Positions 49,149 through 56,971 of a DNA stretch of 64,000 nucleotides are shown here, piece by piece. Origin of the DNA: Massilia soli (GTDB lineage: Bacteria; Pseudomonadota; Gammaproteobacteria; Burkholderiales; Burkholderiaceae_D). A model generated the notes under the pieces. The model made no database searches and was not told the origin of the DNA. It was given only the letters and a program-made list of their open reading frames with translations. The DNA lies in the NCBI RefSeq assembly GCF_016809835.1, contig NZ_JAFBIL020000001.1, positions 248,001 to 312,000 of the forward strand. The letters run 5' to 3'. The position numbers and the translations under genes are program-made. Every line of letters starts with the position of its first letter. Positions within the stretch are counted from its first letter, which is position 1.

Positions 49149-51458
49149 ATGACCGCACTCATGCCTGTCCGCCCCGAACGCCTCACCGGCACCTCCAACC
49201 TCCTGCTCGCGACCGACCTCGACGGCACTCTGCTGGCCGGTACCAGCGACGCCAGGCGCCGCGTGCGCGACCTGTTCAGCGGCGGCTTGCCCGGCGCCAA
49301 GCTGGTCTTCATCACCGGACGCGGACTCGAATCGGTCATTCCCCTGCTGAGCGACCCGACCATCCCGGCCCCCGACTACATCATCGCCGACGTCGGCGCC
49401 ACCATCGTCCATGGCGACCTGCGCCCGGTCAGCCAGCTGCACCATGCGCAGGCGGCCAACTGGCCGGGTAGCCAGGCGGTGCTGCGCGCGCTGGCCGGCT
49501 TTCCCCAGCTGCAGCGCCAGACCGTGCCGCAAGAGCGCCGCTGTTCGTTCTTCCTGGCCGAAGGCGACATCAGCGACTCCCTGCGCGCGGCCGTCGAGGC
49601 GCTCGACTGCGACCTGCTGTTCTCGGCCGGACGCTACCTCGACGTGCTGCCGCGCGGCGTCAGCAAGGGCAGCGCGCTGCGCCGCCTGGTCGCCGCCGAA
49701 GGCCTGGCCGAGTCCAAGGTGGTGGTGGCCGGCGACACCCTGAACGACCTGTCGATGTTCGAGGCCGGCTTTGCCGGCATCGTGGTGGGCGGCGCCGAGC
49801 CGGCGCTGGTCGAGTGCGTGCGCAAGCTGCCGGCCACCTTCATGGCGCGCAGCGAAGGCTGCGGCGGCATCCTCGAAGGGCTGGCCCACCACGGCACCCT
49901 GGTCGAGCCGAGCGCCGCCGCCCAGCAGCGGTCGGAGCGCCGCGGCGAAGCCGACCTGGTGATGGTCTACCACCGCCTGCCGTTCGACGAAGTGGTCGAA
50001 GACGGCGTGATGACCCAGCGCCGCCCGAAAAGCCCGAACGGCATCATCCCGACGCTGCTGTCGTTCTTCGGCGGCGGCCAGACCGGCTCGTGGGTGGCGT
50101 GGTCGCAGCAGGAATCGCGCGAGCCGGACGACTTCGAAAGCCATGTCACGGTCGATGCCGAGCGCTATCCGCGCCTGAAGGCGGCGCGCATCCCGCTCAC
50201 CGCCGAGGATGTCGACCTGTTCTACAAGAAATTCTCGAAGGAAGCGTTCTGGCCGATCATCTTCTCGTTCCCCGACAAGGCCGAATTCCACCAGGACCAC
50301 TGGGAGCGCTTCCTTGAGGTCAACCGCCTGTTCGCCGAGCAGACCGCGCGCGAGGCGGCCGAAGGCGCGGTGGCCTGGATCCACGACTACAACCTGTGGA
50401 TGGTGCCGGCCTTCCTGCGCCCGCTGCGCCCGGACCTGAAGATCGCCTTCTTCCACCACACCGCGTTCCCGTCCAGCGACGTCTTTAATATCCTGCCGTG
50501 GCGCCGCGACATCATCGGCAGCCTGCTGCAGTGCGACTACGTCGGCTTCCATATCCCGCGCTATGTCGAGAACTTCGTCGACGCGGTGCGCTCGTTCGCG
50601 CCGGTCGAGGTGCTGGGCACGACGCCGTGCGCGCCGCGCTACCTGACCTACGGCTGCGCGCTCGGGGTCGACACGATGGCCTCGGCGATCCAGGTCGGCG
50701 GGCGCACCGTCGCGCTTGGCGCGCACCCGGTCGGCACCGATGTCGGGCTGATCAACCGCCTGGTCGACACCGAGCCGGTGCAGCAGAACATCGGCGCGAT
50801 CGACGCCTACCTGGACGGCGTGACCGGGATCGTCTCGATCGAGCGGCTCGACTACGTCAAGGGCTCGCTGGAAAAGCTGCAGGCCTTCGAGCGGCTGCTG
50901 GAACAGTATCCCGAGATGCTGGGCAAGGTCACCCTGCTCAACATCATCACCCCGGCCGCGCCCGGCATGGAAATCTACGAAAGCCTGCGCGTCGAGGTCG
51001 ACCGCGTAGTCGGACGCATCAATGGCCGCTTCTCGACCCTGAACTGGGTGCCGGTGCGCTACTTCTACCGCTCGCTGCCGTTCGACGAGGTGGTGGCCCA
51101 CTACGCCGCCTGCGGCGTGGCCTGGATCACGCCGCTGCGCGACGGGCTGAACCTGGTGGCCAAGGAATACATCGCCACCCGCAAGGCGGTCGGCAAGCCG
51201 GGCGTGCTGATCATGTCCGAATTCGCCGGCGCCGCGGTCGAACTGCACGGCGCGCTGCTGACCAATCCATACGACGCCAACGCCATGACCGCCACCCTGT
51301 ACCAGGCGCTGACGATGGGCCACGACGAGGCGGTCTACCGCACCGGGCGGCTGGCCGCGATCGTGACCGAGCATGACGTCCGGCGCTGGGGCGACGGTTT
51401 CCTCGGCGCCGTCGCGCGCCACGCTGCCAGCGAGGCGCCGGCGAAGGAAGCGGCATGA
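49149..51458 (+). CDS. ggpPS: Fused HAD phosphatase / glucosylglycerol-phosphate synthase-like GT20 enzyme (GgpPS type)
   Basis: 769 aa in two parts. Residues 15 to about 260 are a HAD phosphatase of the sucrose/trehalose-phosphatase type: nucleophile D23 and acid D25 in ATDLDGT, then GDTLNDLSMF (D196, D200). Residues about 268-760 are a GT20 glycosyltransferase beginning MVYHRLPFDEV. It has WIHDYNLWMVPAFLR, FFHHTAFPSSDVFNILPWR, SIERLDYVKG and PLRDGLNLVAKEY, the donor-binding Arg, Lys and Asp/Glu of the family. The block order matches cyanobacterial GgpS more closely than OtsA, and fused GgpPS proteins are known from some proteobacteria. Expected reaction: ADP-glucose plus glycerol 3-phosphate to glucosylglycerol phosphate, then dephosphorylation in the same chain. 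The acceptor is inferred. First of an operon with ATGA overlaps. Confidence 0.82.
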   Translation: MTALMPVRPERLTGTSNLLLATDLDGTLLAGTSDARRRVRDLFSGGLPGAKLVFITGRGLESVIPLLSDPTIPAPDYIIADVGATIVHGDLRPVSQLHHAQAANWPGSQAVLRALAGFPQLQRQTVPQERRCSFFLAEGDISDSLRAAVEALDCDLLFSAGRYLDVLPRGVSKGSALRRLVAAEGLAESKVVVAGDTLNDLSMFEAGFAGIVVGGAEPALVECVRKLPATFMARSEGCGGILEGLAHHGTLVEPSAAAQQRSERRGEADLVMVYHRLPFDEVVEDGVMTQRRPKSPNGIIPTLLSFFGGGQTGSWVAWSQQESREPDDFESHVTVDAERYPRLKAARIPLTAEDVDLFYKKFSKEAFWPIIFSFPDKAEFHQDHWERFLEVNRLFAEQTAREAAEGAVAWIHDYNLWMVPAFLRPLRPDLKIAFFHHTAFPSSDVFNILPWRRDIIGSLLQCDYVGFHIPRYVENFVDAVRSFAPVEVLGTTPCAPRYLTYGCALGVDTMASAIQVGGRTVALGAHPVGTDVGLINRLVDTEPVQQNIGAIDAYLDGVTGIVSIERLDYVKGSLEKLQAFERLLEQYPEMLGKVTLLNIITPAAPGMEIYESLRVEVDRVVGRINGRFSTLNWVPVRYFYRSLPFDEVVAHYAACGVAWITPLRDGLNLVAKEYIATRKAVGKPGVLIMSEFAGAAVELHGALLTNPYDANAMTATLYQALTMGHDEAVYRTGRLAAIVTEHDVRRWGDGFLGAVARHAASEAPAKEAA

Positions 51459-52324
51459 CGTCACTGGTGGTGGCCGGCCTCGCCTACCTCGAGGTGTACG
51501 TGCCGCCGCACGCGCCGGTGGCGCCCGGCCACGAGCGCTTCATCGACGGCATCGGGCTGGGCCTGGGCGGCGCCCTGAACACCGCCAGCGTGGCCGCGGC
51601 GCTGGGCGTGCCGGTCACCCTGTGTGCGCCGGCCGGCAACGGCATCGCCGACCTGGCGCTGGCGGCGCAGGCGGCGCGCCTGGGCATCACGCTGGCGGCG
51701 CTGCCGTCGCGCGACGACCCGGCCATCTCGCTGGTATTTGCCGACGCCAGCGAGCGCGCGTTCGTCAGCTCGGCCGACTTCGACGCGCTCGGCCAGGTCG
51801 AGCAGCTGCCGGAGGGCGGCTGGATCTTCGTGCCCGGCCTGGAAGAGGCGGCGCGCCTGGCGGCGCCGCTGGCGCGGGCGCGCCGCCAGGGCGCCAAGGT
51901 GGCCGTCAGCGCCAGCTGGAACGAACAGCGGCTGGCGCAGCTGGCCACGCTCGGCGGCACCCCATGGGACCTGCTGGTCCTCAATGAGAAGGAAGCCGAG
52001 GCGGCCTGCGGCCAGGTCGACGGCGCGCCCGAACGACTGGCCGGCGTGGCCGCGTCGGTGATCGTCACGATGGGGCTGCACGGCGCCCGCGGCACCCTGG
52101 ACGGCAGCCACTTCAGCGCCCCGGCCGCGCCGGCCGCCGTGATCGACACCACCGGCGCCGGCGACGCCTTCTGCGGCGGCCTGCTGGCCGCCCTGCTGCG
52201 CGGGGCCGCGCCGGCCGCCGCGCTGCGGGTGGCCGCGCGCGCCGCCGCCATCATCCTCGAACAACGCGGGGGCATGCTGGCCGCCCCCGACCGCATGGCC
52301 GCACTGGCCAGGGAGATCGCATGA
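51455..52324 (+). CDS. PfkB-family carbohydrate kinase
   Basis: 289-aa ribokinase-fold kinase. N-terminal GGALNTASVAAALGVPVTL is the first signature (substrate-lid region) and DTTGAGDAFCGGLL (231-244), with catalytic base D237, is the second. Substrate unknown; sugars, sugar phosphates or nucleosides are possible. Its ATG overlaps the ggpPS stop by 4 nt and its stop overlaps the GH4 start by 4 nt, so it is made with them. It might rephosphorylate a sugar freed from the osmolyte. Confidence 0.85.
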   Translation: MTSLVVAGLAYLEVYVPPHAPVAPGHERFIDGIGLGLGGALNTASVAAALGVPVTLCAPAGNGIADLALAAQAARLGITLAALPSRDDPAISLVFADASERAFVSSADFDALGQVEQLPEGGWIFVPGLEEAARLAAPLARARRQGAKVAVSASWNEQRLAQLATLGGTPWDLLVLNEKEAEAACGQVDGAPERLAGVAASVIVTMGLHGARGTLDGSHFSAPAAPAAVIDTTGAGDAFCGGLLAALLRGAAPAAALRVAARAAAIILEQRGGMLAAPDRMAALAREIA

Positions 52325-53595
52325 CCATATTGACTGTACTCGGTGGCGGCAGCGCCTACACCCCCGGCCTGCTCAAGGCCCTGATTGCGCACGCCGCCGA
52401 ACTGCGGCTCGACACCGTGCGCCTGTACGACACCGACGCCGAGCGGCTGGCGATCGTCGGCCGGCTCGGCGCGGCGATGGCGCAGGCCGCCGGCGCCTTC
52501 CGGGTCGAGACTGCCGCCACCCTCGAGGATGCGGTGCGCGGCGCCGCCATGGTGCTCAACTCGACCCGCCCGGGCGGGCTGGCCGCGCGCCGCATCGACG
52601 AGACCCTGCCGCTGGAATTCGACATTCCGGGCCAGGAGACGGTCGGCCCGGGCGGCTTCTTCTACGCGCTGCGCTCGGTGCCCGAAGCGCTGCGGGTAGC
52701 CGACGCGATGCAGGCGCTGGCGCCCGGCGCCGTGCTGCTCAATTACACCAACCCCAGCAACATCGTGACCCAGGCGCTGGCCGACCAGGGCAAGGTCAAC
52801 GTGGTCGGCATGTGCGACCAGTCCGATGAAGACCTCGAATCGCTGGCCCATGCGCTCGGGCGCAGCGGCCACCCGGCATTCCGCTGCAATGGCCTGAACC
52901 ACGCCACCTGGTTCAGCGACGTCAGCATCGGCGGCGAACCGCTGGGCGAGCTGCCCGGCCAGCTGACCCCGCCGGACAGCTACGACGAAGAGCACCAGCT
53001 GCGCTTCGCCTATTCGCTCGCGCTGGCGCGCGCCAACCCGGGCTACTGGCCCAATTCCTACCTGCCGTATTACCTGTATCCGGCGGCGTTTGTCGAGCAG
53101 GCGCGCCGGGTCGGCCCGCGCAGCGACGTGGTGGCCGCCTCGCTGCCGCGCTACTACGCCCACTTCGAGGAGCAGGGCCGGCTGGCGGCGCCGCAGCTGA
53201 GCATATACCGCGGTTCGGCCGGCTTTGGCGACATGGCGGTCAATGTGATCCGGGCGCTGCTGGCCGACACCCCGAGCGAGCTGGTGCTGAACTTGCCGAA
53301 CCGCGGCGCCACCGGCGCGTTCGACAGCGACTGCGTGGTTGAGACGCGGGCGCGGGTATCGCGCCACGGCATCGAGCGGATTCCGGCGCCGCCGCTGCCG
53401 GACAGTTTCGTCGACCTGGCGATGGCGCTGGAGCGCTACCAGCGGCTGGCCGCGCGCGCCGCTGCCGACAGCGCCGACGGGCCGCGCATCGCGGCGCTGG
53501 CGGCCAACCCGCTGGTCGGCGACGCCGCGCTGGCCGGGCGCATGCTGGCGCGCGCGCGCCAGGCCTACGGCGACCTGATCAGGTGGCAAGCATGA
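52321..53595 (+). CDS. Glycoside hydrolase family 4 enzyme (6-phospho-glycosidase type)
   Basis: 424 aa. N-terminal Rossmann fold with GGGSAYTP (8-15) for NAD, NYTNPSN, and the GH4 metal ligands C165 (VGMCDQSD) and H194 (NGLNHATW). GH4 enzymes cut glycosidic bonds by an NAD/Mn-dependent oxidation-elimination route, usually on 6-phosphorylated sugars. The specific substrate cannot be read; next to a kinase and a glycoside synthase, a phosphorylated glycoside is the natural guess. Overlaps both neighbours by 4 nt. Confidence 0.85.
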   Translation: MTILTVLGGGSAYTPGLLKALIAHAAELRLDTVRLYDTDAERLAIVGRLGAAMAQAAGAFRVETAATLEDAVRGAAMVLNSTRPGGLAARRIDETLPLEFDIPGQETVGPGGFFYALRSVPEALRVADAMQALAPGAVLLNYTNPSNIVTQALADQGKVNVVGMCDQSDEDLESLAHALGRSGHPAFRCNGLNHATWFSDVSIGGEPLGELPGQLTPPDSYDEEHQLRFAYSLALARANPGYWPNSYLPYYLYPAAFVEQARRVGPRSDVVAASLPRYYAHFEEQGRLAAPQLSIYRGSAGFGDMAVNVIRALLADTPSELVLNLPNRGATGAFDSDCVVETRARVSRHGIERIPAPPLPDSFVDLAMALERYQRLAARAAADSADGPRIAALAANPLVGDAALAGRMLARARQAYGDLIRWQA

Positions 53596-54413
53596 TGACC
53601 CGCGCCCTGCTCGACGGGCTCGATGTCGACGCCTACGAACGGGTGGTGATCCTGTCGCCCCACCTCGACGACGCCGCGCTCAGCTGCGGCGGCCTGCTGC
53701 ACGCGCTGCAGGGGGTGTCGACACTGGTGGTGACCCTGTGTAGTGGTAACCCGCCGGCCTTGATGGCGGCCGACGGTACCATCAAGGCGCCGTCGCGGCG
53801 CGGCCACGTCAGCCCGCGCATCCGGCGCCGCGAAGACATCGCCGCGATGCGCTCGATCCGCGCCGAATTCGTCCACCTGAGCTTTCCCGATGCCATCTAC
53901 CGGCGCAGCCAGGCCGGCAAGCTGATCTACCGGAACGAGCGCGAGCGCTGGGTCGCGCCGCGCGCCGACGACAGCATCTACATCGAAGAGCTGCACCAGC
54001 TGCTGCGCCGCATCTGCCTCGACCTGGGCAGCATCCTGCTGGTGAGCCCGATGGGCATCGGCGACCATGTCGACCACCAGATCACGGCCCGGGTGGCGCT
54101 GCGGCTGGCGCAAGCCGGCGCCAGCCTGCTGTTCTACGAAGACTTCCCGTACGTGGCCGACCCCGCCAGCGGGCGCGGCGACGCCGACGGGCCGGCCCAG
54201 GCGCTGGCGCGGTTGCGGCTGGCGCCGGCCGAGCGCTTCATCGTGCCGGTCGATGTCGAAGGGAAGATGCGCCTGCTCGGCCATTACGCGTCGCAGGTGC
54301 CGGTGCTGTTCGGCAGCGACGAACAAATGCGCAGCGCCATCCTGGCACACCAGCACGGCGGCGCGCCATGCGAGTTCTACTGGCGGGCCAAGCCCCTCAA
54401 CGTACCCGTTTAA
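53592..54413 (+). CDS. PIG-L-type zinc deacetylase
   Basis: 273 aa of the LmbE/PIG-L family. The metal and catalytic motif is SPHLDDAALSCGG (P23, H24, D26, D27) and the third ligand motif is GDHVDHQI (H159, H162). Family members remove acetyl groups from N-acetyl amino sugars (MshB in mycothiol and BshB in bacillithiol synthesis). Here it is the fourth overlapping gene of the operon. Its presence hints that an amino-sugar glycoside is involved, which plain glucosylglycerol synthesis would not need. Confidence 0.85.
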   Translation: MMTRALLDGLDVDAYERVVILSPHLDDAALSCGGLLHALQGVSTLVVTLCSGNPPALMAADGTIKAPSRRGHVSPRIRRREDIAAMRSIRAEFVHLSFPDAIYRRSQAGKLIYRNERERWVAPRADDSIYIEELHQLLRRICLDLGSILLVSPMGIGDHVDHQITARVALRLAQAGASLLFYEDFPYVADPASGRGDADGPAQALARLRLAPAERFIVPVDVEGKMRLLGHYASQVPVLFGSDEQMRSAILAHQHGGAPCEFYWRAKPLNVPV

Positions 54414-54433
54414 CCAGATACAAGGATTAGCAC

Positions 54434-55555
54434 ATGAATTACCTCATCCTCGGCAATCCCACCCTCGACTGGCTGGCCGCCGCCGGCGTCGCCTTGGGCG
54501 TGGTGCTGGCGTTGTACGGCGCCAAGGTGCTGCTGGTGCGGCGTCTTGGCGCGATCGCCGCACGCACCAATACCCGCTACGACGACATCCTGGTGGCGGC
54601 GCTGGCGTCGACCCGCGTCCCGGTGATGCTGATCATCGGCCTGTACGCGGGCTCGACCATGCTGGACCTGGGCGACAAGGCCGCGTTGTTCCTGAGCCGC
54701 GTGGCGATGGGCGCGACGCTGGTGCAAGCGGCGATCTGGGCCGACAGCGCGGTACGCGCCTGGCTGGCCCAATACCGTACCGGTCCGCAAGTCGATCCCG
54801 GGCGCGCCACTTCCACGGCGGCGCTCGGCTTCATCGTGCGGGTGGTGGTATGGGCGGTATTCGTCCTGATGATCCTCGACAACCTCGGCTTCAACATCAC
54901 CACCCTCGTCGCCAGCCTCGGCATTGGCGGCATCGCGGTGGCGCTGGCGGTGCAGAACATCCTGGGCGACCTGTTCGCCTCCCTGTCCATCGTGCTCGAC
55001 AAGCCGTTTGTGATCGGCGACTTCATCGTGGTGGGCGATTCGCTCGGCACGGTCGAGTATGTCGGCCTGAAGACCACCCGGGTGCGCAGCCTGTCGGGCG
55101 AGCAGATCATTTTCTCGAATGCCGACCTGCTCAACAGCCGGATCCACAACCTGCGCCGCATGGAGACGCGGCGCGTCGTGTTTTCAGTCGGCGTGACCTA
55201 CAGCACCAGCGAAGAACTGCTGCGCGCGCTGCCCGGCGAGATTGCGCAGATCGTCAAGGCGCAGGAGCGGGTGAGCTTCGACCGCGCCCACTTCAAAGGC
55301 TTTGGCGCGTCGTCGCTGGACATCGAGGTGGTGTATATCGTCAACAGTCCCGAGTACGCGGTCTACATGGATGTGCAGCAGGAGATCTACCTGCAGATCT
55401 ACCGCCGCTTCGGCGAACTTGGCGCCGACTTCGCGTTTCCGACGCAGACGCTGCATGTGGTGGGAATGGAGGCGCGCGCAGAGGACGACTCGGCGGTCAG
55501 AGCGCGGCCAGAGTCGCCGCTGCGCGCGCGCCTGGCGGGCGCGGCTGGCGAATGA
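54434..55555 (+). CDS. Mechanosensitive channel of the MscS family
   Basis: 373 aa. Four or so N-terminal helices, then the pore helix region VASLGIGGIAVALAVQNILGDLFASLSIVLDKPF, typical of MscS TM3, and the beta domain GDFIVVGDSLGTVEYVGLKTTRVRSLSGEQIIFSNADLL. The C-terminus is extended with a charged, Ala/Arg-rich tail. MscS channels release solutes on hypo-osmotic shock. It lies 20 nt after the PIG-L gene, most likely in the same transcript. Confidence 0.92.
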   Translation: MNYLILGNPTLDWLAAAGVALGVVLALYGAKVLLVRRLGAIAARTNTRYDDILVAALASTRVPVMLIIGLYAGSTMLDLGDKAALFLSRVAMGATLVQAAIWADSAVRAWLAQYRTGPQVDPGRATSTAALGFIVRVVVWAVFVLMILDNLGFNITTLVASLGIGGIAVALAVQNILGDLFASLSIVLDKPFVIGDFIVVGDSLGTVEYVGLKTTRVRSLSGEQIIFSNADLLNSRIHNLRRMETRRVVFSVGVTYSTSEELLRALPGEIAQIVKAQERVSFDRAHFKGFGASSLDIEVVYIVNSPEYAVYMDVQQEIYLQIYRRFGELGADFAFPTQTLHVVGMEARAEDDSAVRARPESPLRARLAGAAGE

Positions 55556-55588: not shown

Positions 55589-55665
55589 CTGGTGGGCGGT
55601 GCAGAATTCGAATCTGCGACCCCTTGGATGTCGACCAAGTATTCTAACCAGCTGAACTAACCGCC
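55589..55665 (-). tRNA. tRNA-Val(GAC)
   Basis: 77 nt including encoded CCA. All four arms fold: acceptor GGGCGGT/ACCGCCC, D stem GTTC/GAAT, anticodon stem CTTGG/CCAAG, T stem GCAGA/TCTGC with TTCGAAT loop. The anticodon loop TCGACAT gives GAC, and the discriminator is A, both fitting valine. Position 33 is C instead of the nearly universal U. Convergent with the MscS gene, 33 nt away. Confidence 0.85.
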
Positions 55666-55742
55666 CGGGGACCGGCATTTTAACGCCCCGTGGCGAATCC
55701 GGCAAGTGCCAGTATCGTGGCGTGCGCCGGGTTTCTTATCGG

Positions 55743-56312
55743 CTAGCGGAGATGGGCATCGACATCGGCGGGATCGGTTAATTTGATCAGGCTCTTGACC
55801 GAAAAAAGAACGATCAGAATGCCAAGGACATCGCCAGTGATCATCGCCACCAATGCCGGCCAGTCGACCAGCCCCGTCTCGACCCAGATGAAGGCATGAT
55901 GGAAGGCTGGACTCACCAGCCCGCACAATATCCCCGTGAAGAACAGGCGCCCCGCTGTCAGGTTGCCGAGGCGCGGGCGCAGGTCAAACCAATGCTTGGC
56001 GAAGAGATAGGCGAGGTAGGGACCTCCGGACGCGGCCACTGCGCCGTACAGTGCCCGGGTGTCGTCCTGGAAGGCGAAGTGCTGGAAATTGAGGTAAATG
56101 CTGGCGAGCAGCAGGCCGATAAATCCTGCAAATCCGAAAAAAAGCGTCGCCAGCAGGCGGATTCCGGCCGGAAGGAATACCCAGCTGATCCCTTCGCTGT
56201 GCTCGAATCGATGGAACAAGAGCTCATTGATCCAATTGAGCGCGATGATCGACACGATCGTGATCGCGATATTCCGGAGGCTGGTCAGCGCGTGATTGGT
56301 AGAGCTTGACAT
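55743..56312 (-). CDS. MASE1-like integral membrane protein of unknown function
   Basis: About 189 aa with five or six hydrophobic helices. The segment VFLPAGIRLLATLFFGFAGFIGLLLASIYL resembles the MASE1 sensor membrane domain, but no signalling output domain follows. The start is uncertain: ATG 56312 or GTG 56357, neither with a good ribosome site. It lies between the tRNA and a DUF2784 gene on the rpsJ side of the island. Function unknown. Confidence 0.65.
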   Translation of the reverse strand: MSSSTNHALTSLRNIAITIVSIIALNWINELLFHRFEHSEGISWVFLPAGIRLLATLFFGFAGFIGLLLASIYLNFQHFAFQDDTRALYGAVAASGGPYLAYLFAKHWFDLRPRLGNLTAGRLFFTGILCGLVSPAFHHAFIWVETGLVDWPALVAMITGDVLGILIVLFSVKSLIKLTDPADVDAHLR

Positions 56313-56476: not shown

Positions 56477-56878
56477 CTAACGGGCCGGACGCGTGGGCGG
56501 CACCCGCACCCAGCTCCACAGAACCAGCAAGCCGAACGCGCTGTAGAGCGCGATGAATACCCAGGGCGGCGCCTCGAAAAACAGCGCGCGGCTGAGCCAG
56601 TGGGCGATGAAGCCGTCGTCGTAGCCAAGCTGCCCTGCCCGCGTTCTCAGCCACTGCTCAAGCACGGTCAGCCCGCAGTCGATTCCCAGCCACGTCGTGA
56701 TGACCACGTAGGCAATCGCGGCCAGGTGCAGCAGGCGGAAGGCCAGGTTCCTGACCCATTGCCAACCCAGGCCGGGGCCCGCCAGCACCAGCACCAGGGC
56801 GCCGACGTTGAACAGCACGACGCCCACATGCAGTATCAGCACGGCATCGGCGAGTAGGCGGTAGGTCGAGGAATCCAT
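56477..56878 (-). CDS. DUF2784 family membrane protein
   Basis: 133 aa with four helices. [27 protein letters not shown], then [35 protein letters not shown] match the DUF2784 pattern, including the conserved CGLTVLE. The ATG at 56878 is preferred over a longer reading that would run into the rpsJ terminator. Function unknown. Confidence 0.8.
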
Positions 56879-56971
56879 CGTGGCCGTTGGGAGGATAAGG
56901 CGGGGCGCCGCATCCGACGGGATGCGGCCTGTGGTCTTATGCGCCCTGCGATTGTATTCCGTTCTCGACAT

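What the first reader, a model, noticed from the sequence alone, without database searches (positions are those of the whole stretch)
49149..55555. Candidate undescribed glycoside osmolyte system: GgpPS - PfkB - GH4 - PIG-L - MscS
Four enzymes are joined by ATGA overlaps, which implies coupled translation and a common pathway, and a MscS channel follows 20 nt later. The first makes and dephosphorylates a glycoside (GT20 plus HAD). GH4 and PfkB could open and rephosphorylate it for recycling. The PIG-L deacetylase suggests that an acetylated amino sugar is part of the product. Glycosyl transfer, dephosphorylation and deacetylation is also the logic of mycothiol synthesis (MshA, phosphatase, MshB). 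I know of no described pathway with this gene set.
Basis: partly seen in the sequence, partly recalled or inferred. Interest (0 to 1): 0.78.

Follow-up and report, generated by a model that had tools for sequence, protein, structure and literature searches.

The report
Osmolyte operon with built-in breakdown module
A Massilia-like bacterium keeps the gene for making a sugar-based salt protectant in one operon with a release valve and a set of sugar-cleaving enzymes; the gene set recurs in distant bacteria and may be an undescribed way to recycle that protectant.

Summary
The genes and junctions are as described. The first gene is a fused HAD-GT20 glucosylglycerol-phosphate synthase (TIGR02398, 671 bits, cut-off 569). 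The set is conserved: of 20 loci with this GH4 type, 19 have PfkB, 16 PIG-L and 16 GgpPS, from Betaproteobacteria to Myxococcota. In 5 of 5 Oxalobacteraceae with GgpPS but no GH4, mscS directly follows ggpPS, so PfkB-GH4-PIG-L looks like an accessory module between them. GH4 keeps 8 of 9 -1-subsite residues of ChbF, a GH4 that needs its chitobiose phosphate deacetylated first. Best reading: synthesis, release, uptake and breakdown of a glycosylglycerol-type osmolyte, breakdown going by deacetylation, 6-phosphorylation, NAD-dependent cleavage and deamination. PIG-L and SIS imply an amino sugar somewhere, which plain glucosylglycerol does not explain; this stays open. None of the paper listings seen names the set. 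It bears on how ggpPS heterotrophs degrade glucosylglycerol.

The parts
49149..51458 (+). ggpPS: fused HAD (S6PP-type) phosphatase, residues 17-249, and GT20 glucosylglycerol-phosphate synthase, residues 270-758
   Evidence: Pfam S6PP 167 bits and Glyco_transf_20 424 bits; TIGR02398 equivalog 671 bits, cut-off 569
51455..52324 (+). PfkB-family sugar kinase, ATGA overlap with ggpPS; proposed to phosphorylate the 6-OH of the glycoside
   Evidence: Pfam PfkB 88.7 bits; TGAGD invariant in 9 of 9 aligned; no NCBIfam equivalog reaches its cut-off
52321..53595 (+). GH4 NAD-dependent glycosidase of the 6-phospho group, motif CDQS; proposed to cleave the phosphorylated glycoside
53592..54413 (+). PIG-L (LmbE-type) zinc hydrolase, proposed N-deacetylase acting before GH4
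54434..55555 (+). MscS-type mechanosensitive channel, proposed release valve for the solute
   Evidence: Pfam MS_channel domains 1-3; directly follows ggpPS in 5 of 5 Oxalobacteraceae genomes of the draw with GgpPS but no GH4

Best explanation
It is a compatible-solute operon with its own turnover arm. Shown by sequence: a fused glucosylglycerol-phosphate synthase/phosphatase, a PfkB kinase, a GH4 of the 6-phospho group, a PIG-L hydrolase and an MscS channel, conserved as a set; relatives add a NagB-II-like SIS protein and a sodium symporter. Inferred: GgpPS makes a glycosylglycerol-type osmolyte under high salt; MscS lets it out on dilution; where present, the symporter takes it back. For breakdown the glycoside is deacetylated where it bears an N-acetylhexosamine (PIG-L), phosphorylated at C6 (PfkB), and cleaved by the NAD/Mn-dependent GH4 to a hexose 6-phosphate (glucose-6-P or glucosamine-6-P) and glycerol. 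Glucosamine-6-P is deaminated by SIS or a housekeeping NagB-type enzyme. This is the logic of the E. coli chb operon, with kinase and PIG-L in place of PTS and ChbG, applied to a solute that the cell makes itself. The least certain step is what PIG-L acts on.
For: Linkage: of 20 loci with this GH4 type, PfkB in 19, PIG-L in 16 (in 3 of the other 4 the contig ends first), GgpPS in 16, SIS in 11, MscS in 8. Linkage survives rearrangement: GgpPS is on the other strand from the module in L036 and L103. The 12 lower-scoring GH4 loci that I inspected show none of the window partners; SIS was sought in 6 of them. Osmotic context: mscS follows ggpPS in 5 of 5 GgpPS-only Oxalobacteraceae; betaine-transporter-like genes lie upstream of ggpPS in L027 and L029; an SSF symporter lies beside ggpPS in Myxococcota. 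Chemistry: GH4 groups with 6-phospho-glucosidases; its CD motif and PN[ST]YLxYY stretch match 6-phospho-alpha-glucosidases, fitting an alpha-glucoside. ChbF needs prior deacetylation of its disaccharide (PMC13197890, passages). The SIS scores best to NagB-II. Module and no-module rows are mixed on the GgpPS tree, as expected of an accessory arm. Precedents: gghA beside ggpS, ggp beside ggpPS (PMC6753628, PMC10873239, passages).
Confidence: 0.5

Rival explanations
1. The solute is itself an amino-sugar glycoside: this GgpPS clade uses UDP-GlcNAc (or a similar donor) and the product, for example N-acetylglucosaminyl-glycerol, is later deacetylated, phosphorylated, cleaved and deaminated by the module.
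For: Explains PIG-L and SIS, which otherwise have no substrate; ChbF needs deacetylation first; the clade is only 42-45% identical to the GgpS of Dinoroseobacter, G1082 and G017 and differs from them and from Falsirhodobacter at positions conserved in the clade, such as HHTAF against HTPF and DYVKG against DYTKG.
Against: The five clade members scanned score 638-681 bits to TIGR02398, like Dinoroseobacter ggpS at 658 (G1082 783); the recalled OtsA donor contacts that I could match are kept, with a one-residue shift between recalled and read numbering; GgpPS of 74-78% identity without the module are interleaved in the tree, so the donor is probably shared by genomes without the module.
Confidence: 0.2
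2. The module takes in or degrades an unrelated amino-sugar glycoside (chitooligosaccharide- or cell-wall-like) and is linked to ggpPS only by shared regulation or by accidents of gene transfer.
Against: GgpPS linkage in 16 of 20 loci across two phyla and through rearrangement; L032 and L034 are contigs of 5.2 and 4.4 kb; ATGA coupling of ggpPS to pfkB in the window.
Confidence: 0.18
3. Biosynthetic reading of the first reader: glycosyl transfer, dephosphorylation and deacetylation build an amino-sugar product, as in mycothiol synthesis.
Against: GT20 rather than the recalled GT4 type of MshA; no ligase gene in the operon; a 6-phospho-type GH4 and, in relatives, a NagB-II-like SIS point to breakdown; the module is absent beside close GgpPS. 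A genome-wide search for a ligase was not made.
Confidence: 0.07

Closest known systems
Glucosylglycerol systems: ggpS-gghA of cyanobacteria and ggpPS-ggp of Marinobacter (PMC6753628, PMC10873239; passages seen)
   Same: GT20 synthase with HAD-type phosphatase (fused in Marinobacter), a degradation gene beside the synthase, release thought to go through mechanosensitive channels, and re-uptake
   Different: Here the neighbouring genes are PfkB, GH4, PIG-L and, in relatives, SIS, not a GghA hydrolase or a GH13_18 phosphorylase; the transporter in myxococcal relatives is an SSF symporter, not the Ggt ABC system
E. coli chb operon (ChbBCA PTS, ChbF GH4, ChbG deacetylase; annotation)
   Same: Deacetylase plus 6-phospho GH4; 8 of 9 -1-subsite residues of ChbF kept; glucosamine-6-P as possible product for a deaminase
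   Different: PIG-L instead of ChbG, a PfkB kinase instead of PTS, GH4 motif CDQS instead of CNIP, linked to a solute synthase; no PTS transporter
Mycothiol and bacillithiol synthesis (MshA/MshB, BshA/BshB)
   Same: Glycosyl transfer and PIG-L-fold deacetylase
   Different: GT20, no cysteine ligase in the operon, GH4 and kinase present; PIG-L model nearest Dbv21 and Orf2, with Dac and BshB about equal and MshB lower
GH4 6-phospho-alpha-glucosidases (GlvA, PDB 1u8x; 6dux; 6wbt)
   Different: 24-27% identity; partner kinase is PfkB rather than a PTS (PTS partner recalled)

Membership tests
Glucosylglycerol-phosphate synthase (TIGR02398) | score over the curated cut-off | tested here: met
   671 bits, cut-off 569
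Glucosylglycerol-phosphate synthase (TIGR02398) | NDP-glucose and glycerol 3-phosphate as substrates | not testable with these tools
   needs an enzyme assay
Known glucosylglycerol turnover loci | GghA or glucosylglycerol phosphorylase (GH13_18) beside the synthase | tested here: not met
   downstream genes are PfkB, GH4, PIG-L and MscS, upstream is the ribosomal cluster; the rest of the genome was not searched for GghA or GGP
GH4, 6-phospho-glycosidase group | GH4 domains, Cys/His site, 6-phospho-type -1 subsite | tested here: met
GH4, 6-phospho-glycosidase group | alpha or beta preference | tested here: inconclusive
   CD and PN motifs as in alpha enzymes; best sequence scores and top Z to beta enzymes, though the Thermotoga beta enzyme scores below the alpha ones by sequence; GlvA and BglT use both anomers when the leaving group is good (PMC10628242, passage)
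chb operon | ChbG-type deacetylase and PTS genes in the locus | tested here: not met
   PIG-L and PfkB instead
PIG-L de-N-acetylase | Pfam score and zinc-site residues | tested here: met
   50.6 bits, cut-off 28.2; H24, D26, D27, H159, D161, H162 invariant in 9 of 9 (assignment to the zinc site recalled)
PIG-L de-N-acetylase | N-deacetylase activity | not testable with these tools
   needs an assay; the fold also holds the hydratase GalB
Mycothiol synthesis | MshA-type GT4 glycosyltransferase | tested here: not met
   GT20; GT4 for MshA is recalled
Mycothiol synthesis | MshC-type ligase | not tested
   none among the five operon genes; the genome was not searched
NagB-II glucosamine-6-phosphate deaminase (SIS gene of relatives) | NCBIfam NF046059 cut-off | tested here: not met
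   100.8-119 bits in 4 of 4 proteins scanned, cut-off 430

The most novel reading that the evidence does not exclude
An amino-sugar compatible solute, such as N-acetylglucosaminyl-glycerol, made by a GT20-HAD fusion with a changed donor and recycled by a PIG-L/PfkB/GH4/SIS route: a new class of osmolyte and a new catabolic pathway, shared by Betaproteobacteria and Myxococcota.
Probability: 0.2. Interest if true: 0.82.

Novelty: new variant of a known kind. Interest (0 to 1): 0.6.

Why it matters
How heterotrophs with the fused ggpPS break down glucosylglycerol is called mysterious in PMC10873239, which then shows a phosphorylase in Marinobacter (passages); [quoted passage not shown] A conserved, translationally coupled kinase-GH4-deacetylase set beside ggpPS is a concrete candidate, testable with a handful of proteins. 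If PIG-L acts on the solute, the assigned product of ggpPS would be wrong for this clade.

Tried and rejected
Mycothiol-like synthesis was considered and put low (see rivals). A chance array was rejected by conservation. Plasmid spread of the GH4: no match in 72,556 plasmid records at E 1e-60. The set is rare: 1 of 200 genomes of the order (E 1e-40) and 1 of 274 of the class (E 1e-80), the own genome in each; in 299 genomes of the phylum 7 have a GH4 at 1e-60, but only the own one scores above 276 bits. Lower-scoring GH4 loci were read as outgroups: 6 of the 7 other places (L075-L080) and 6 of the 15 other genomes (L106-L111). They are other GH4 types, one apparently a chb operon (L078, by its ORFs); no window partner was found, but one search compared predicted ORFs only and did not include SIS, and some of these contigs are short. 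Donor specificity could not be settled by aligning 14 clade GT20 domains with six other GT20 and OtsA; contacts were recalled and the printout was cut. The tree holds 21 rows; L025, L037, L005, L007 and L012 were dropped beforehand as partial, duplicate or not GgpPS. The label needs 4 changes on it, but starred branches alone force only 1, so repeated loss or gain is likely, not proven, and which of the two is not settled. Alignments A1-A3 use 9 of the 20 loci. The four GH4 genomes are not independent: one is the own genome, two are the genomes of L022 and L026 by identical coordinates, and the third is probably that of L031 (inferred). GgpPS-only genomes were searched whole for GH4, but for PfkB and PIG-L only in 15 kb. 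Papers: I saw listings only (25 of 343; 20 of 1,585; 10 of 18; 10 of 48; 8 of 73; 12 of 48; 5 of 6,746; 1 of 1, unrelated; 10 of 29) and 91 (1 of 1, unrelated); none listed names the gene set. Passages were seen of PMC10873239, PMC13197890, PMC10628242, PMC7404187, PMC6753628 and PMC9402603; no paper was read whole.
Full report
OBSERVATION. Five ORFs lie on the + strand at 49149-51458, 51455-52324, 52321-53595, 53592-54413 and 54434-55555. The first four overlap by ATGA at each of the three junctions, and 20 nt precede the fifth. Pfam gives S6PP plus GT20, PfkB, GH4, PIG-L and MscS. NCBIfam places the first protein over the cut-off of the glucosylglycerol-phosphate synthase equivalog TIGR02398 (671 against 569 bits) and none of the other four over an equivalog cut-off. 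Around the operon lie ribosomal-protein and elongation-factor ORFs on the other strand (named by eye) and a tRNA-Val at 55590-55666. A whole-genome search gave one match for this GgpPS. The genome belongs to the genus of G246, which has the same SIS-like match coordinates as the genome of L022, Massilia agrisoli.

CONSERVATION. A scan of one genome per species with the GH4 gave 15 loci: Massilia, Janthinobacterium, Rhodoferax, other Comamonadaceae, Oxalobacteraceae or unplaced Burkholderiales/Betaproteobacteria, two Myxococcota (L035, L036) and a contig labelled Patescibacteria. A draw of 329 genomes from the phylum of L035 added four loci that I class with this type (L102-L105; L105 by its C-terminal half and its neighbours). 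Over the window and these 19 loci: PfkB in 19 of 20, next to GH4; PIG-L after GH4 in 16 of 20 (in L031, L033 and L034 the contig ends first; L104 lacks it); GgpPS in 16 of 20 (L032 and L034 are short contigs, in L105 the contig ends about 1 kb past GH4, L104 lacks it). MscS is in 8 of 20, all Oxalobacteraceae or Comamonadaceae; L028 and L030 have the DNA but no match at 1e-10. The loci were chosen by GH4, so these counts say what goes with this GH4, not how common the set is. It is rare: 1 of 200 genomes of the order, 1 of 274 of the class, 4 of 145 of the family.

In 11 of 20 loci a SIS-domain gene of about 340 aa follows PIG-L (Pfam run on four). It scores best to NagB-II glucosamine-6-phosphate deaminase in NCBIfam, far below the cut-off (100.8-119 of 430 bits, 4 of 4 scanned); PDB relatives include putative phosphosugar isomerases and glucosamine-6-phosphate deaminase. 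Of the loci with complete context, the four Oxalobacteraceae ones (window, L022, L023, L026) lack it. Their genomes hold only a 29-30% identical protein elsewhere, which could be the general deaminase. In Myxococcota an SSF symporter sits beside ggpPS in L035, L036, L102, L122 and L124, with a fragment in L105. In L027 and L029 betaine-transporter-like genes lie upstream of ggpPS (OpuAC Pfam hit about 3 kb upstream in L027; proV as best NCBIfam model, below cut-off and cut by the contig end, in L029). An SH3-domain gene lies between ggpPS and pfkB in four Comamonadaceae loci (L024, L025, L027, L029; Pfam on L024).

THE MIDDLE GENES LOOK LIKE A MODULE. Of 145 Oxalobacteraceae genomes, 9 have a close GgpPS and 4 of these the GH4. 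In 5 of 5 GgpPS-only genomes mscS follows ggpPS with a gap of 1 to 32 nt by my start calls. Three of these (L048-L050) sit beside the same ribosomal cluster as the window, by eye, so the same site exists with and without the module. More distant GgpPS loci of the order (L053, L054; 66-67%) have neither module nor mscS. On the GgpPS tree the two kinds are interleaved, with moderate support (4 changes; starred branches alone force 1). In the myxococcal draw this GH4 type is in 5 and GgpPS in 5 of 329 genomes, shared by 3. A fourth GgpPS genome has ggpPS-SSF-pfkB up to its contig end (L122), and the fifth (L123) is a more distant GgpS of 45% identity without the module on its contig. The 12 lower-scoring GH4 loci inspected showed no window partner; SIS was sought in 6 of them.

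MECHANISM. I propose an osmolyte life cycle: GgpPS makes, MscS releases, a symporter (where present) retrieves, and deacetylation, 6-phosphorylation, GH4 cleavage and deamination break down. Shown: the genes, their conservation, the GH4 group and intact motifs. Inferred: every reaction and substrate. The parallel is chb logic applied to a solute the cell makes itself, and the placement parallels gghA or ggp beside the synthase in cyanobacteria and Marinobacter (PMC6753628, PMC10873239; passages). The weak point is that glucosylglycerol has no N-acetyl group. Either PIG-L and SIS serve a second compound, or this GgpPS clade adds an amino sugar, or PIG-L is not a deacetylase here. The clade differs from the other GgpS aligned at several positions but scores like Dinoroseobacter ggpS on TIGR02398, so I cannot choose.

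NOVELTY. The listings of the searches named under Tried and rejected show no paper with this set; PMC10873239 calls glucosylglycerol catabolism in ggpPS heterotrophs mysterious before presenting the Marinobacter phosphorylase (passages). I file it as a new variant of a known kind: a ggpPS osmolyte locus with an apparently undescribed turnover module.

Noticed in passing
L106-L111 (Myxococcota): In 6 of 6 loci a CNIP-type GH4 gene is followed by an ORF that looks like a DegT-type aminotransferase, and in 4 of 6 then by a Gfo/Idh-like ORF: a second, unrelated GH4 neighbourhood (names by eye from N-terminal sequence).
   Followed up: no
L077, L079: GH4 with motif CSGANS beside a small YiiL-like ORF, a dehydrogenase-like ORF and ribose-type ABC transporter ORFs (names by eye).
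   Followed up: no
L105:8966-9970: A symporter fragment abuts the C-terminal half of GH4; the search counts one stop inside: a deletion, chimera or misassembly.
   Followed up: no
L033: A contig labelled Patescibacteria MAG carries a betaproteobacterial-type cassette; probably mis-binned.
   Followed up: no
L104:4102-6281: PfkB-GH4 pair of this type without PIG-L, SIS or GgpPS; that genome gave no GgpPS match at 1e-100.
   Followed up: partly
L121:6567-10049: Kitasatospora plasmid: a carbohydrate kinase gene (28% to the window PfkB) lies upstream of a GgpPS-like fusion that misses the TIGR02398 cut-off.
   Followed up: partly
window 55743-56312 and 56477-56881, - strand: A membrane protein with a sub-threshold MASE1 match and a DUF2784 protein downstream of the tRNA-Val.
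   Followed up: no
L032:329-1144, - strand: A trehalose-phosphatase-type gene and a MarR-type regulator lie upstream of PfkB-GH4, where other loci have ggpPS.
   Followed up: no
L024:3-164: A second MscS-like C-terminal end (65% over 54 aa) lies upstream of ggpPS, in addition to the MscS downstream.
   Followed up: no
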